A stretch of DNA of 64,000 nucleotides from Clavibacter nebraskensis NCPPB 2581. Its GTDB lineage: Bacteria > Actinomycetota > Actinomycetes > Actinomycetales > Microbacteriaceae. Within the stretch, counting starts at the first letter, position 1, and each line of letters begins with the position of its first letter. The stretch lies in NCBI RefSeq assembly GCF_000355695.1, contig NC_020891.1, positions 2,976,001 to 3,040,000 on the forward strand, read 5' to 3'. Below the pieces are notes generated by a model. The model saw nothing but the letters and a program-made list of their open reading frames with translations. It did no database searches and was not told where the DNA came from. This document shows, piece after piece, positions 13,090 to 18,446 of the stretch. The position numbers were made by a program, and so were the translations under genes.

Positions 13090-13170
13090 GGCAGGAGCAT
13101 ACCGGCGCGGGGTGGCGTCCGGCCGGACTCTTGCTAGGCTGTGGTCTCGACCCGGCTCCTGGCCGGGCGC

Positions 13171-13244
13171 GCGAGTGTAGTTCAATGGTAGAACTTCAGC
13201 TTCCCAAGCTGATAGCGCGGGTTCGATTCCCGTCACTCGCTCCA
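13171..13244 (+). tRNA. tRNA-Gly (anticodon CCC)
   Basis: A full cloverleaf can be drawn. The acceptor GCGAGTG pairs with CACTCGC, the D arm is GTTCAATGGTAGAAC, and the anticodon stem is TCAGC/GCTGA with loop TTCCCAA (anticodon CCC, reading GGG). The T arm is GCGGGTTCGATTCCCGT, followed by discriminator T and encoded CCA. Its 3' end faces the AT-rich island that follows, the classical integration side of tRNA genes. Confidence 0.95.
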
Positions 13245-13285
13245 TTTCCGCGGACAGGATCCCCTCGGGACTACACCTGTTTGAC

Positions 13286-14887
13286 TTACCGATACAACTT
13301 ATTGCCGACATGATTGACGACAATACGCTTCCCCTTGTTATCGAAGTCGAAGTGTATGCGAGCGACACGTGGCCACGGAACTGAATCCGTAACCTTGACA
13401 TGAGGGACATTGCTGAATTCGTCATCTTCAAAAACAAAAAAGGCGTCGGCCTTATTGTGCGTCTCTATCGCCCCGTCGTGAAAAGCGACTGTTAATCCAA
13501 AATTCGATTGAATCCAATCATCAAGGCGCGCATCCAGTTTTGGGGTCGGCCCTACGCTACCAAAACGAGTGATCGCAAGACGACTTAGTGCAACAAGGGC
13601 CTGAGTCATCTGCTCGTAGTTCTCTAGCGCACACTTCGCCCAACTAGTCCTCGCGTTCGGGGTGAAGACGATCTTACCCGACGACACTCGCTCCAAGAAA
13701 TCAAAACTAGCACTCGCATCGCCCGGACTAAGCACAGGCGCATCTTCAAGACTTTCAGCTACGGACGACTCCCCACCAGCGCTCATTGCTAAGATCTGGC
13801 CTTGAAGTGCGTCGGCTTTATACCTGAAGGAATTGACTTCGCGTTCGCGGACAGCAAGTTCATCCTGTGCAGCCTTGGCGTCATCTGCATAAGATTGCGC
13901 AAGCGACTCTAGTTCAGCTGCCTTAGCTTGAAGTCCCGCTACCTGACTCTGAAGAGCCTGCGTCAACTCCCCGGAATCTCCTTTGGCCTTCGCAACAGAC
14001 ACACGCTCTTCAGCATCTGCAACCTGCCTGTTTGCATCTATTTGCCGCATTGTCGACCACAAGCGGTCCGAACCCCTCGAGCGCACTGAGAGGTCGGCTA
14101 GGTGACGCATAAGCTGCGCCCGCAAGCCCTCATCTCCGAGACTCGCGAGGTCGCCAGATGTAAATAGAAGCGGCGGGCTCTCGATGCGAGACCAGACAAG
14201 GGCGGCTCCGCCAAAGGGCACTTGCACAAGAGGTACTTCGTTAGAGATAGCACGTGTATAGCGATAACCGGCTACTACAACTCGAACCAAGCCGACGAGT
14301 CGCTTGGCAGCAGTGCGCGCCGCATCCCAGTCCGCTTGAACCCGGGGGTGAATTAAAAGAACAGGGATTCTCTTCACGTTCCTTATCGCCTGAGAAACCG
14401 CCTGGGCGTCATCTTCGCTTTTAATTATGAGGTAGCGCCCATCTTGCGACGCTCCCTCCACCGTGATAGATAGCGACTTTTCAGAGGCTACGCTAAGAAT
14501 AAGCGTTGGCTGCTTTATCGCCGGTGCTGCCGCGGGAGTGAGACCAGGCCCGAGCGCCTCACGTCCCAGTGATACCCGAATACTGGTCCTCCCTTCAATT
14601 TCAGCAACGGTCACACGAGTCTCGAAAATGACATTCGGTTGATCGGCTTGCCTGACCGTAACTCTCAGTGCACGAGCTCCTTCGTGATTGAAAGCCTCCC
14701 AACTGGCTAAGCCGAGATTCCATCGCTGGAAATCTCCTTCGCGCTTGAGATCGAGCAACACTTCCGCTTGGGCAGTCTTTTCGGTGATCCACCGATTCAC
14801 ATGAAGCAGGAGGATGTCATAGGCCGAGTCATCTGCCTCGCCAGCTTTGAGCGTAGCATCGAGCTGAACCACATACAGAATTTCCAT
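13286..14887 (-). CDS. Unrecognised coiled-coil protein, RloC-like gene's island partner
   Basis: I do not recognise this 533-residue protein. Residues 1-240 look like mixed alpha/beta domains without a known motif. Residues about 275-365 are a long heptad-like coiled coil rich in Ala, Glu, Gln and Lys. After a Ser/Glu linker, the last 50 residues ([20 protein letters not shown] onward, ending NHVGNKLYR) resemble the short beta-sheet core of RelE/ParE-like toxins, a weak resemblance only. There is no signal peptide or transmembrane helix. It lies 249 nt downstream of the RloC-like gene on the same strand, so it may belong to the same defence or mobile module. Base composition is foreign to the host. 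Confidence 0.75.
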
Positions 14888-15136
14888 CAGTTCTTCCCAG
14901 TCCAGATATATTCGAAACGAAACACTCTTCAGAATGGCTAAGCGCTGTCGCTAGAACAGCGCCACTTCGCATCGCTAAGCCTAAGTTCTAAGCGCATTGC
15001 GGCAAGTTGCCCCTGTCGTTACATTATGCCTTTGCAGGTACTTCAAATGATCACGTGTGGTAGAGCGTGGTAAACAGCTTCGCGACCATACGCACCAACC
15101 TGACGGCCCCAAAAGCAGTGACATTACGGTAGTGAA

Positions 15137-17380
15137 TCAAGCACGCGGCGGTAGCTCCAACTCGCCCATCATCATCGAGTAGTGCCCCTCTTGCTCGAGT
15201 ACCGTGAAAATTTTCTTGAAAATGCCCATGTACGTGGTTGCAGACGACGCCGAGGTTTCGTACTCAATGTCGTCAAATATGGCATGAGAACCAGCATTCG
15301 CCCAGGACAGAAGCGCTCGACACGCGGCTTGTTCCTCTCCACTGAACGCCCCGACAACTCTCGAGTAATCGACACCACCAAGGATCTTGAAGTATGTTTC
15401 GAGAATCCGCCGCAGGTAGTTCTGAAGCCCTGTTGCAGATTCCACTCCGTCTGCGCTCAGGCGCTTCACCTCGTCCCAGAGTGCCGCGTAAGCCGTCTTA
15501 ATGGGATTTTTGTCCATAAACTCAATTATACTGGGACCGGTTGCGTTTTTACGCACGATTCCAAATTGCCGACTTCCAGCCGTATCAGAAGAACCAACAT
15601 AAGTCACTTCTTTATGAAAGTGTGCATTGTGGGTGAGCAGGATGACCTGCTTCACCCGAGCTTTCCTATTGTTCACATTATTTAGCAGACGCCTAACTAG
15701 CGTTGAGACTGCATATAACACGTCGCTATCCAGGCTTGAAATGGGATCGTCTATTACCGCTACGACCTCTCTTCGCTCGCCTGCGCCTAAGGCAGCGCCT
15801 TCGAGGGAGTGTACGTAGTACAAAAAGGTGACAAATGTTCTCTCGCCTTCGCTAAGCGTGTCTACAACAACCTCGCCAGATTCGCGTGCTAACGAATAAC
15901 CATTTTTGAGGCCGGGAGCTTCAATTAGGTGAAAGTTGTTAAAACCGGCGGACGTAAGCAGGCGATTAATCTTTGCAATTATTGGTTTACTAGACGTCTC
16001 ATGACTCTGCAGCTCTACTACAAGCTTCTCGTCGGCGGCCAGCGACGATGCGGCGTCGGCGATCTTTTCGCTGAGCGTTCGTATCGCGACAGTCAGACTA
16101 GGTGCTAGGGCCTCGTAACGTGCCGACTCAGCGGCAAGCGTAGTGCGGGCGAACGTAATCCAGCAACGTCTTAATAGTTCACGACGCGTAAGTGCTGCGT
16201 TCTTTAGGCGTGCGTTATGCTCGCCGATTTTGGTATTTGTAGCGTCAAGTTCCCACTCCAGGCCCTCAGAAGCGTCTCCAGGCTCCTGAATCTGTATAAC
16301 CGCGGAAGGGTTACGTAGCTTCATCTCAATGTCACTTACGAGCGCCTTAACGATTCGCGTGAAGTTGACATGAGCCTTGGCGAGCGCCTCAGGATCAATA
16401 TATTTCCAACCTTCCGCACTCTGAGAGAGGCGGGACAGCGAATCGTTCCAAACGGATTCCCACGCTTGGACTTGCGCATCCAGTGACTTTATGTCCGCTA
16501 GTTGAGACGTATAGCGACGATTGAAGTAGTTCTCGATGTCATCGATAAATCCTTGAGGCAGTTGCTGCTGGCAGAACGGGCAGCGGTCGCTCGAGTGCTC
16601 AACGAATTGGATGCCCTGCTGGACCCAGTCGGCGTTTTTAAGATGACCGATTAGTCCCGACAAGTTAACATCTTGACTTCCGACTACGGGAGAGGACAAA
16701 AGACCATATCCCGGCATGGCCTCAAAGGCGGGACGCATTGGATAAGCCAACGGTGTGATTGGCGTGGCCTCGGCGTCTAGTACGGCGGCGGCTTCCACGG
16801 CTAACATATCGTAGGTGTCTATGTCATCATATGATTCCGATAAGGCCAATAATAGGCGATCGAAGAACTTATCTTTACTGTTGTTTAGTCCTACGAACAT
16901 CTTAGACAGCTCGGGTGGCACGGCGGACCGAAGTGACCAAGCTTTATCCCGCAAAGCCTCACGCTGAGAACGCAATTCTGAGGCTTTAGCTTCATGAGTT
17001 GTATTAAAGGCTAGAAGTGATGCCCTTTTTCTCTGGATCGAACCAACGGCGTCTCCAGCACCAAGAAGGGCGTCAATTTGCTCTTGTGCTTGCGCGTTCG
17101 ACTCGCCAAGGACGAACACTCCCGGCAAGTTTCGAGATTGTCGGAGCGTGTCTGCGACATAGTCGCGATTATAGACAGACACTTGTCGTTCGTTAGCTGT
17201 CGAGCTCCACGTTAGCGTGGTCCCCGGAAAGCTTGCCGGGGAAGCGAGTGCACGACTGATAGTTGTTTTCCCCGAGCCATTACCGCCAAATAGAAACGTT
17301 AATTCTCGTAGGGGACCAATCACCACCTCCCCGGACAGGCCAAACGCGTGCGCGTTACGGATAGTTATTGACGTAAGCAT
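15137..17380 (-). CDS. RloC/PrrC-like AAA ATPase, candidate anticodon nuclease
   Basis: This protein of about 747 residues has an ABC-type ATPase split around a coiled coil. Walker A GGNGSGKTT is at residues 32-40 and a zinc-hook-like CPFC at 267-270 in the coiled-coil insertion. The signature LSEGE is at about 509, Walker B VVAVIDDP at about 539, and an H-loop LLTHN at about 582. The C-terminal region carries R657-x3-E661 (LRRILE) and H699 (NAGSH), matching the Arg-Glu-His catalytic triad known for PrrC and RloC anticodon nucleases. Those enzymes cleave tRNA in the anticodon loop in response to phage or DNA damage. The start at 17380 is chosen at MLTSITIRN, the usual family N-terminus; 17437 is also open. 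Target tRNA is unknown. Confidence 0.75.
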   Translation of the reverse strand: MLTSITIRNAHAFGLSGEVVIGPLRELTFLFGGNGSGKTTISRALASPASFPGTTLTWSSTANERQVSVYNRDYVADTLRQSRNLPGVFVLGESNAQAQEQIDALLGAGDAVGSIQRKRASLLAFNTTHEAKASELRSQREALRDKAWSLRSAVPPELSKMFVGLNNSKDKFFDRLLLALSESYDDIDTYDMLAVEAAAVLDAEATPITPLAYPMRPAFEAMPGYGLLSSPVVGSQDVNLSGLIGHLKNADWVQQGIQFVEHSSDRCPFCQQQLPQGFIDDIENYFNRRYTSQLADIKSLDAQVQAWESVWNDSLSRLSQSAEGWKYIDPEALAKAHVNFTRIVKALVSDIEMKLRNPSAVIQIQEPGDASEGLEWELDATNTKIGEHNARLKNAALTRRELLRRCWITFARTTLAAESARYEALAPSLTVAIRTLSEKIADAASSLAADEKLVVELQSHETSSKPIIAKINRLLTSAGFNNFHLIEAPGLKNGYSLARESGEVVVDTLSEGERTFVTFLYYVHSLEGAALGAGERREVVAVIDDPISSLDSDVLYAVSTLVRRLLNNVNNRKARVKQVILLTHNAHFHKEVTYVGSSDTAGSRQFGIVRKNATGPSIIEFMDKNPIKTAYAALWDEVKRLSADGVESATGLQNYLRRILETYFKILGGVDYSRVVGAFSGEEQAACRALLSWANAGSHAIFDDIEYETSASSATTYMGIFKKIFTVLEQEGHYSMMMGELELPPRA

Positions 17381-17478
17381 GCATGACCCGATCTGTACGT
17401 CAAGGCCCGATGGCCACCAAGCTTTAAGATTGAGCACCTACCGGTACGGCTGAGCCGACAAGTAGATGTACTGCGAGA

Positions 17479-17706
17479 CTATTTGCTTAGCACACCTCGT
17501 GCCCGCCCCCAGTTCAGGGTACGTAATTTATTGTTTCGGCGGTAATAGCAATCGCTTAATTTAGTGGGAAATAACGCCGCTGGCGGGCGGCCTTGCGGAT
17601 TGCCCTCATCGTTTGACCATGTGTCTAGAAGTATCGGGAGAGCGCTGGCTCGGGCAGCTACGAGCAGGGTGTCTGAATCGAGCCGGCCGCTGCTTGTGAT
17701 GCTCAT
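17479..17706 (-). CDS. Small hypothetical ORF at the island edge
   Basis: This 75-residue reading frame of island-like composition lies between the RloC-like gene and the gluconate regulator. It begins MSITSSGRLDSDTLLVAARA and shows no recognisable domain, signal or membrane segment. The ribosome binding site is weak. It could be real, a remnant of a gene broken at the island boundary, or noise. Apart from this frame I see nothing in 17381-17717. Confidence 0.25.
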   Translation of the reverse strand: MSITSSGRLDSDTLLVAARASALPILLDTWSNDEGNPQGRPPAALFPTKLSDCYYRRNNKLRTLNWGRARGVLSK

Positions 17707-17717
17707 TGAGCTTCTGG

Positions 17718-18446
17718 TCAGCGGATCGCACTGCTGACCTCCGCCAACAACGACGCCATCCCCGCCTCCGCCGTCGCCGCATCCCCATCCCGGATCGCGT
17801 GCGCCACCTGCTCGTGGGTGTCCAGCGCATGCGGCCTCGGCGTCCGGGGCATCAGCCCCTGGTGCGTGCGGCCGCTGAGGACCTCCGTGATCACCTCGCG
17901 GAGGGCGCAGAACATGTCGTTGCCGCTGGCCTCGAGGATCAGGTGGTGGAACTCGATGTCGGCGGCGAGGAAGTCGACGAGGGCGCCGGCCTCGCCGAGG
18001 CGGCGGAGATCCACCGCGAGCTCGGCGATGCGCGTGCGCTGAGCAGCCGTCGCATTGCGAGCAGCGAGCGACGCCGCGACCGGCTCGACCGCGCGGCGCA
18101 GCTGGGTGAGGGAGCGGAACTGGTCCGAGCGGCCGGGGCCGGTGAGGCGCCAGCGGATGATGCGCGGGTCGTAGACGTTCCAGCGGTCCGGGCCCTGCAC
18201 CACGAGGCCCACGCGGCGCTTCGGAACGATCAACGCCATCGCCTCGAGCACGCGCACGCAGTCGCGCACCACCGTGCGGGAGACGCCGAAGCGCTGCTGG
18301 AGGTCCTCGATGGTGAGGCGGGTGCCCTCGGCGAGACGGCCGTCGACGATGTCGCGGCCAAGCTCCTCGATGATCCGCGTGGCCATCACCGTAGCGGCGG
18401 GGACCGCGCCGGCGGGCGCCGAGGGTGGGACTGACCGCGTCGTCAT
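17718..18446 (-). CDS. gntR: GntR/FadR-family regulator of gluconate use
   Basis: This 242-residue regulator has an N-terminal GntR winged helix (LTIEDLQQRFGVSRTVVRDC) and a C-terminal all-helical FCD domain containing the metal/ligand histidines in DIEFHHLILEASGN and DTHEQVAHAI. It is divergent from gntK and gntP, so it likely represses them until gluconate or its phosphate is bound. GGAGAGG lies 3 nt before the ATG at 18446. A symmetric GGTGTTACC core at about 18535-18543 in the shared intergenic region is a possible operator, by inspection only. Confidence 0.88.
   Translation of the reverse strand: MTTRSVPPSAPAGAVPAATVMATRIIEELGRDIVDGRLAEGTRLTIEDLQQRFGVSRTVVRDCVRVLEAMALIVPKRRVGLVVQGPDRWNVYDPRIIRWRLTGPGRSDQFRSLTQLRRAVEPVAASLAARNATAAQRTRIAELAVDLRRLGEAGALVDFLAADIEFHHLILEASGNDMFCALREVITEVLSGRTHQGLMPRTPRPHALDTHEQVAHAIRDGDAATAEAGMASLLAEVSSAIR

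What the first reader, a model, noticed from the sequence alone, without database searches (positions are those of the whole stretch)
15137..17380. RloC/PrrC-like nuclease in an island beside tRNA-Gly
The ATPase carries a CPFC hook in its coiled coil and a C-terminal R-x3-E...H set that matches the known anticodon-nuclease triad. PrrC and RloC are anti-phage or DNA-damage-activated tRNases. This one has foreign composition and no restriction-modification genes nearby, so it may be a self-contained abortive-infection system.
Basis: partly seen in the sequence, partly recalled or inferred. Interest (0 to 1): 0.8.

Follow-up and report, generated by a model that had tools for sequence, protein, structure and literature searches.

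The report
RloC-type tRNA-cutter in defence slot
The gene looks like an ordinary member of a known family of bacterial suicide enzymes that cut tRNA after DNA damage or phage attack; it sits in a chromosomal slot beside a glycine tRNA gene where related genomes carry differing, mostly anti-phage-looking gene cassettes.

Summary
Observation confirmed. 15137-17380(-) is an intact 747-aa AAA_13/PDC-S06 protein with the RloC sequence features that I could test: ABC-ATPase motifs, CPFC hook, R657-x3-E661-x37-H699. In 44 aligned sequences both hook cysteines and R657 occur in 44, E661 in 42, H699 in 43. Best reading: an RloC-type anticodon nuclease, a new member of a known kind. Lack of linked restriction-modification genes is usual for RloC (8 of 73 linked in print). 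Activity, target and phage defence are untested; structure prediction was off.

The setting is more interesting. The GC-poor island (13245-17717) runs from the base after tRNA-Gly to the stop codon of a convergent GntR-type gene. The bins beside it align in 15-17 of 17 other genomes of the genus, the island in 0 of 17. All 18 genomes hold a GC-poor cassette there, in 14 homology groups; 16 are defence-like by PADLOC (two by homology only). No integrase or transposase turned up in the part scanned with Pfam. Of 20 such sites in other genera, 1 is GC-poor. The HEC-07 neighbour is not an obligate partner.

The parts
15137..17380 (-). RloC-type ATPase / predicted anticodon nuclease, 747 aa (ATG at 17380)
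   Evidence: AAA_13 6e-133; PDC-S06 PDLC04890 6e-202; conserved motifs
17264..17287 (-). Walker A, GGNGSGKT, residues 32-39
   Evidence: sequence; N34, G37, K38 invariant in 44
16571..16582 (-). CPFC zinc-hook motif, residues 267-270
   Evidence: both cysteines in 44 of 44
15842..15856 (-). ABC signature LSEGE, residues 509-513
   Evidence: invariant in 44
15725..15754 (-). Walker B / D-loop IDDPISSLDS, residues 543-552; linchpin histidine H584 follows
15398..15412 (-). R657-x3-E661 (RRILE), first two residues of the predicted nuclease triad
   Evidence: R 44 of 44, E 42 of 44
15284..15289 (-). S698-H699, third residue of the predicted nuclease triad
   Evidence: S 43 of 44, H 43 of 44; 37 residues after E661
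13286..14887 (-). 533-aa HEC-07-type gene, second cargo gene of the island
   Evidence: PADLOC HEC-07 PDLC04161 2e-17; in 4 other of 297 order genomes
13245..17717 (.). GC-poor cassette; variable slot of the genus
   Evidence: aligns in 0 of 17 other genomes of the genus, the bins beside it in 15-17
13171..13244 (+). tRNA-Gly(CCC), left edge of the slot
   Evidence: ARAGORN; Rfam RF00005; sequence after it differs between genomes
17718..18395 (-). convergent GntR-type regulator (named from my reading of the sequence, not from a family scan); its stop codon is the right edge of the slot; true start not determined

Best explanation
The gene encodes an RloC-type anticodon nuclease. The ABC-ATPase head with its coiled-coil and CxxC zinc hook senses broken or phage-processed DNA; ATP hydrolysis then frees the C-terminal domain, whose Arg-Glu-His set cuts a host tRNA in the anticodon loop and stops translation, so that the cell stops growing or dies before phage are released. 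It needs no restriction-modification partner. It came in as part of a GC-poor cassette in a slot between tRNA-Gly and a GntR-type gene, where genomes of this genus carry differing, mostly defence-like cassettes. Shown here: gene, motifs, their conservation, the slot. Inferred from characterised RloCs: coiled coil, DNA sensing, tRNA cutting, phage defence.
For: Size, ATPase motifs, hook and R-x3-E-x37-SH fit the published RloC definition. The best PADLOC family, PDC-S06, covers residues 1-740. Four of 9 phage records with a relative (27% identity over 95% of the query) are annotated 'translation-disabling ACNase'. Flank ORFs of 15 relatives (91 ORFs) hold only 4 N6_Mtase, 3 Methylase_S and 3 HsdM_N matches, so R-M linkage is uncommon, as in print. 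A characterised RloC is activated by DNA breaks and cuts tRNA also when R-M genes are deleted (passages seen). Slot.
Against: No structure could be made, and no solved chain found by sequence covers the nuclease domain. The isolated C-terminal 148 residues match only PDC-S06 models, not PrrC. The HEPN motif Rx4-6H is not present before H699 in the window protein, and position -4 is N in 40 of 44. No alignment to the tested Geobacillus or Acinetobacter RloC was made, as neither sequence was in hand. No promoter-like site lies on the gene's strand (2 found in the stretch, both on +, 2.9 expected by shuffling). Nothing shows activity, target or phage resistance.
Confidence: 0.78

Rival explanations
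1. The two island genes form one two-part system: the ATPase senses and the HEC-07 protein (or both together) acts.
For: Same strand, ATPase upstream, 249 bp apart, same island and composition; both match defence-candidate families.
Against: In 297 genomes of the order HEC-07 relatives occur in 4 other genomes (E up to 1e-6) and the ATPase in 8 others (E up to 1e-20), with no genome in common but the own one. None of the 80 loci fetched around ATPase relatives holds a HEC-07 relative by tblastn (a number of these loci have short flanks). The ATPase carries its own conserved nuclease-type triad.
Confidence: 0.1
2. The C-terminal domain is a nuclease of another specificity (mRNA, rRNA or DNA) rather than an anticodon nuclease; the family PDC-S06 is broader than the tested RloCs.
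For: The window protein matches 13 PDC-S06 models, one of them far better than the rest (671 bits, next 443). Tested RloCs are few; the natural substrate of one was not identified and another cut tRNA-Glu and tRNA-Gln (passages).
Against: The triad spacing and the hook fit the definition used for tested RloCs.
Confidence: 0.12
3. Silent gene: foreign, GC-poor DNA kept by drift or silenced, with no defence role in this host.
For: Strong GC contrast; no promoter-like site on the gene's strand in 13100-17800 (only one promoter type is covered by that scan).
Against: The frame is intact with the conserved motifs kept; all 18 genomes of the genus have the slot filled, mostly with defence-like genes, which drift alone does not predict.
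Confidence: 0.08

Closest known systems
RloC (Davidov and Kaufmann 2008, PMC2610378; Klaiman et al. 2013, PMC3874168; passages seen)
   Same: Length class, ABC-ATPase motifs, CxxC hook, R-x3-E-x36-52-(S)H, usually no linked R-M
   Different: No activity shown here; identity to the two tested RloCs not measured
PrrC (described in passages)
   Same: ATPase plus C-terminal Arg-Glu-His; weak match to the PADLOC PrrC model at 542-734
   Different: Window protein is about twice as long, has the hook, and has no R-M gene in its island; PADLOC PrrC was found in 0 of 246 genomes of a phylum sample at E up to 1e-20 (1 of 14 control genomes rang)
PADLOC PDC-S06 (defence candidate; 4 papers hold the term, listing only seen)
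   Same: Full-length match 6e-202
   Different: A candidate label without a mechanism; RloC is the mechanistic name
Core defence hotspots and replacement islands (P. aeruginosa cDHS1/2, PMC10250203, passages seen)
   Same: Conserved flanks, a tRNA near the edge (proline tRNA for cDHS1), lower GC, differing defence systems, almost always occupied
   Different: Here short whole cassettes (2.0-6.4 kb; cDHS1 median 26 kb), no integrase or transposase found in the part scanned, in an actinobacterial genus

Membership tests
RloC | 658-897 aa | tested here: met
   747 aa (range)
RloC | Walker A, ABC signature, Walker B/D-loop, linchpin His | tested here: met
   residues 32-39, 509-513, 543-552, 584
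RloC | CX2C zinc hook in an insert of the ATPase domain | tested here: met
   CPFC 267-270, between Walker A and signature; both C in 44 of 44
RloC | antiparallel coiled coil flanking the hook | not tested
RloC | Arg-X3-Glu-X36-52-His, often Ser before His | tested here: met
   R657, E661, 37 residues, S698-H699
RloC | only rarely linked to an R-M system | tested here: met
   no R-M family in the two island genes; one N6_Mtase match in the genome, about 217 kb away; other R-M families and the rest of the window not searched
RloC | anticodon-loop cleavage / wobble excision, DNA-dependent | not testable with these tools
   needs biochemistry
PrrC | 341-416 aa, no hook insert | tested here: not met
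   747 aa, CPFC hook
PrrC | linked to a type Ic hsd locus | tested here: not met
   no hsd gene in the island; single N6_Mtase match far away
HEPN RNase domain (PMC3710099, passages seen) | Rx4-6H motif | tested here: not met
   no R 5-7 residues before H699 in the window protein; N at -4 in 40 of 44. The paper nevertheless places the RloC and PrrC domains in HEPN
HEPN RNase domain (PMC3710099, passages seen) | all-helical HEPN fold | not tested
   structure tool off
HEC-07 (neighbour gene) | match to PADLOC HEC-07 models | tested here: met
   2e-17, residues 77-527 of 533
Defence hotspot (replacement type) | conserved flanks with unrelated, mostly defence cassettes between genomes | tested here: met
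   right flank gene absent in 2 of 17
Integrase-borne genomic island | integrase and flanking att repeat | tested here: not met
   window island genes: no integrase, no repeat of the tRNA end at 17 of 22 or better in any of 19 slots; 2 Phage_integrase matches in the own genome, neither near. Serine integrases not searched for by name

The most novel reading that the evidence does not exclude
The slot between tRNA-Gly(CCC) and a GntR-type gene is a genus-specific, always-filled, one-cassette defence slot in which whole GC-poor cassettes are swapped with edges at the end of the tRNA and at the last codons of the regulator, by a process that leaves no integrase, transposase or att repeat: either flank-driven homologous exchange or a recombinase supplied from outside the cassette.
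Probability: 0.3. Interest if true: 0.65.

Novelty: new member of a known kind. Interest (0 to 1): 0.42.

Why it matters
As a single gene it adds one well-preserved actinobacterial RloC. The slot matters more: it gives a small, sharply bounded collection of 14 cassette groups from one genus, of which one group (two genomes) matches no PADLOC or Pfam family in its main gene, and so offers a place to look for new defence genes and to ask how defence cassettes are exchanged without mobility genes of their own. The paper on P. aeruginosa hotspots names as open whether such core hotspots are common in other clades.

Tried and rejected
PrrC membership was rejected on size, hook and context (see membership test). 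A fixed two-gene system with HEC-07 was tested by co-occurrence and not supported. HEC-07 relatives are rare: 1 other of 396 phylum genomes at E up to 1e-10, 1 plasmid record, none in viral contigs. Integrase-type island: no repeat of the tRNA end and no integrase in the island. Solved-structure searches gave weak ATPase-head, coiled-coil or chance matches and nothing for HEC-07. An attempt to name the organism by plasmid similarity failed.

Rows dropped: of the 80 loci, 41 with long matches were examined; four of these (L026, L040, L043, L050) had internal stops in the frame used and were left out, not mended; L061 was left out of A3 and A4; L013 (partial) was left out of A1 and A3. The neighbour tally used 91 of the 136 ORFs listed, from 15 of 20 loci; these ORFs are mechanical calls of 200 aa or more within 6 kb. 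G309, G313 and G302 were not scanned with PADLOC but are homologous to scanned G306, G298 and G304. G314 belongs to another genus and is not among the 18. In one search loci were returned for the best 30 of 59 matching genomes; one search looked at 28 loci, of which 20 had the tRNA beside dcd; 'GC-poor' there means under 62% in the first 1000 bases (one locus had only 447 bases).

Literature: searches (HEC-07 with PADLOC: 0 papers; PDC-S06: 4 papers; hotspot searches; listings only, apart from PMC10250203): I saw no paper on this slot. Most subscription journals, and preprints, are not held.

Full report
The gene. The minus-strand ORF 15137-17380 encodes 747 aa from an ATG (766 aa from an upstream GTG). 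It matches Pfam AAA_13 over nearly its whole length (6e-133) and PADLOC PDC-S06 (6e-202, residues 1-740). PADLOC PrrC matches weakly at 542-734 (2e-8); the last 148 residues alone match only PDC-S06 models. NCBIfam has no match over a cut-off. No solved structure found by sequence covers the nuclease domain.

Motifs. Walker A, signature, Walker B/D-loop and the linchpin histidine are in place. CPFC is at 267-270. RxxxE occurs five times, but only R657-E661 is followed by the conserved S-H. In alignment A3 (window plus 43 relatives, 17-39% identical), C267, C270 and R657 are in 44 of 44; E661 in 42 (D in L014 and L045); S698 and H699 in 43 (L032 lacks both); H733 in 39. The E-to-H gap is 37 in the window and 32-44 in the set; the published range is 36-52, so two relatives (32 and 33) fall short of it.

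Comparison with RloC. From passages of PMC2610378: RloC orthologues are 658-897 aa, carry ABC motifs, a CX2C hook in a coiled-coil insert and Arg-X3-Glu-X36-52-His, often with Ser before His; 8 of 73 are linked to type I or III R-M. From passages of PMC3874168: a DNA-break inducer activates RloC in its own host, also when R-M genes are deleted, and tRNA-Glu and tRNA-Gln are disrupted. The window protein meets each sequence feature tested; the coiled coil was not tested. Passages of PMC3710099 place the RloC and PrrC nuclease domains in the HEPN superfamily; the literal Rx4-6H motif is not present here, so I rely on the paper for that assignment.

Relatives. tblastn finds the protein in 143 plasmid records; the best, 44% in Arthrobacter sp. 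U41, is in two pieces with an annotated DDE-type integrase/transposase under the match. Nine phage records hold a relative. In the order, 8 other of 297 genomes have it at E up to 1e-20; in the genus only the own of 18 genomes at E up to 1e-10, although three others hold distant PDC-S06 proteins (below). In the flanks of 15 relatives (91 ORFs), 4 ORFs match N6_Mtase, 3 Methylase_S and 3 HsdM_N (the PADLOC tally agrees): R-M linkage is uncommon but occurs.

The neighbour. 13286-14887(-), 533 aa, matches PADLOC HEC-07 (2e-17) and no Pfam family over its cut-off. HEC-07 relatives occur in 4 other of 297 order genomes, none of which has the ATPase at the thresholds used, and in none of the 80 loci around ATPase relatives. 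A 2026 paper says that several Hma-embedded candidates, naming HEC-06, showed antiviral activity (passages); the passages seen do not name HEC-07.

The slot. The island is 13245-17717. In 17 other genomes of the genus the 750 bases up to the end of tRNA-Gly are 94-98% identical to the window. After the tRNA no two of the 18 genomes share 6 bases or more, except G302 and G304, which share 59; in G297 the last base of the tRNA also differs. On the right, 15 of 17 have the GntR-type gene; G307 and G311 do not. Counting the own genome, 9 of the 16 copies end in TGA, 5 in TAG and 2 in TAA and the last codons vary (read, where ends were extrapolated by up to 13 bases), so cassettes may bring the end of that gene. 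In three copies (G297, G313, G299) the tool counts stops inside the frame. G304 and G308 carry an extra 3' piece of the gene beyond the first cassette, as a single-crossover insertion by homology would leave; that is inference. In 500-base bins the bins beside the slot align in 17 (left) and 15 (right) of 17 genomes, and all nine island bins in 0 of 17. Other flank bins do less well: 7 at 11.2-12.2 kb, 10 at 18.2-19.2 kb, 3 at 20.7-22.2 kb, 1 at 6.2-8.2 kb, and fewer towards both ends, partly because the pieces compared were 7.7-15 kb long. So the slot is not the only variable place, but among the bins compared it alone aligns in none. Other-genus control: of 20 family genomes with the tRNA beside dcd, 1 (G314) is GC-poor downstream; a few others lie at 62-66%.

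Cargo. The 18 cassettes of the genus are 2.0-6.4 kb and 51-58% GC (for G307 and G311 the right limit was set by eye). They fall in 14 groups if proteins alike over most of their length are joined (G302/G304, G306/G309, G298/G313, G300/G303); short ATPase matches between G000, G300, G303 and G308 were not used. PADLOC matches at 1e-10 or better: PDC-S06 in G000, G300, G303, G308; PtuA/PtuB in G306 (G309 by homology); Old in G305; PD-Lambda-2 proteins in G298 (G313 by homology) and G301; Tmn over the first 530 residues in G297; PDC-S46 in G299; methyltransferase and AbiU in G310; methyltransferases in G312; QatA in G307; AriA/Old type in G311. That is 14 by scan and 2 by homology, 16 of 18; the main protein of G304 matches nothing in PADLOC or Pfam. 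PADLOC models of ATPases cross-match widely, so these are labels of kind, not proof of system. CxxC-bearing PDC-S06 proteins with an R-x3-E occur in four slots and differ greatly (G300/G303 51% identical, other pairs only short matches of 28-33%). No integrase or transposase family appears among 34 distinct cassette proteins of the 17 other genomes scanned with Pfam (3 more are from G314) or among the island's own genes; the remaining larger cassette proteins were scanned with PADLOC only, and ORFs under 70 aa not at all.

Mechanism. Shown: an intact, conserved RloC-type architecture and a cassette that differs between genomes. Inferred: the ATPase-hook part senses DNA ends, hydrolysis releases the nuclease, a tRNA is cut and translation stops. 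The natural target and the trigger in this host are unknown.

Verdict.

Noticed in passing
13245-17717; L145-L161: Slot between tRNA-Gly(CCC) and a GntR-type gene, filled with differing GC-poor, mostly defence-like cassettes in 18 of 18 genomes of the genus; the right-hand gene is absent in two of them.
   Followed up: yes
L149:848-3831; L157:855-3835: Cassette with a thymidylate-synthase-like gene, an alpha-glutamyl/putrescinyl thymine pyrophosphorylase (a DNA base-modification family usually seen in phages, as I recall) and a PD-Lambda-2_B/IrrE-type gene, in two bacterial genomes.
   Followed up: partly
L147:733-2163; L152:713-2143: 477-aa protein that fills most of a cassette in two genomes (98% identical); the L147 copy matches neither PADLOC nor Pfam: candidate new defence gene.
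   Followed up: partly
L148:987-1835; L154:945-1832: 283-296-aa protein behind a PtuA/PtuB pair in two genomes; the L148 copy matches no PADLOC or Pfam family.
   Followed up: no
L147 and L146: Extra 3' pieces of the GntR-type gene beyond the first cassette, with DNA of higher GC behind them.
   Followed up: partly
L156 (G297), end of the tRNA-Gly gene: The last encoded base of the tRNA differs (CCT in place of CCA) at the cassette edge.
   Followed up: no
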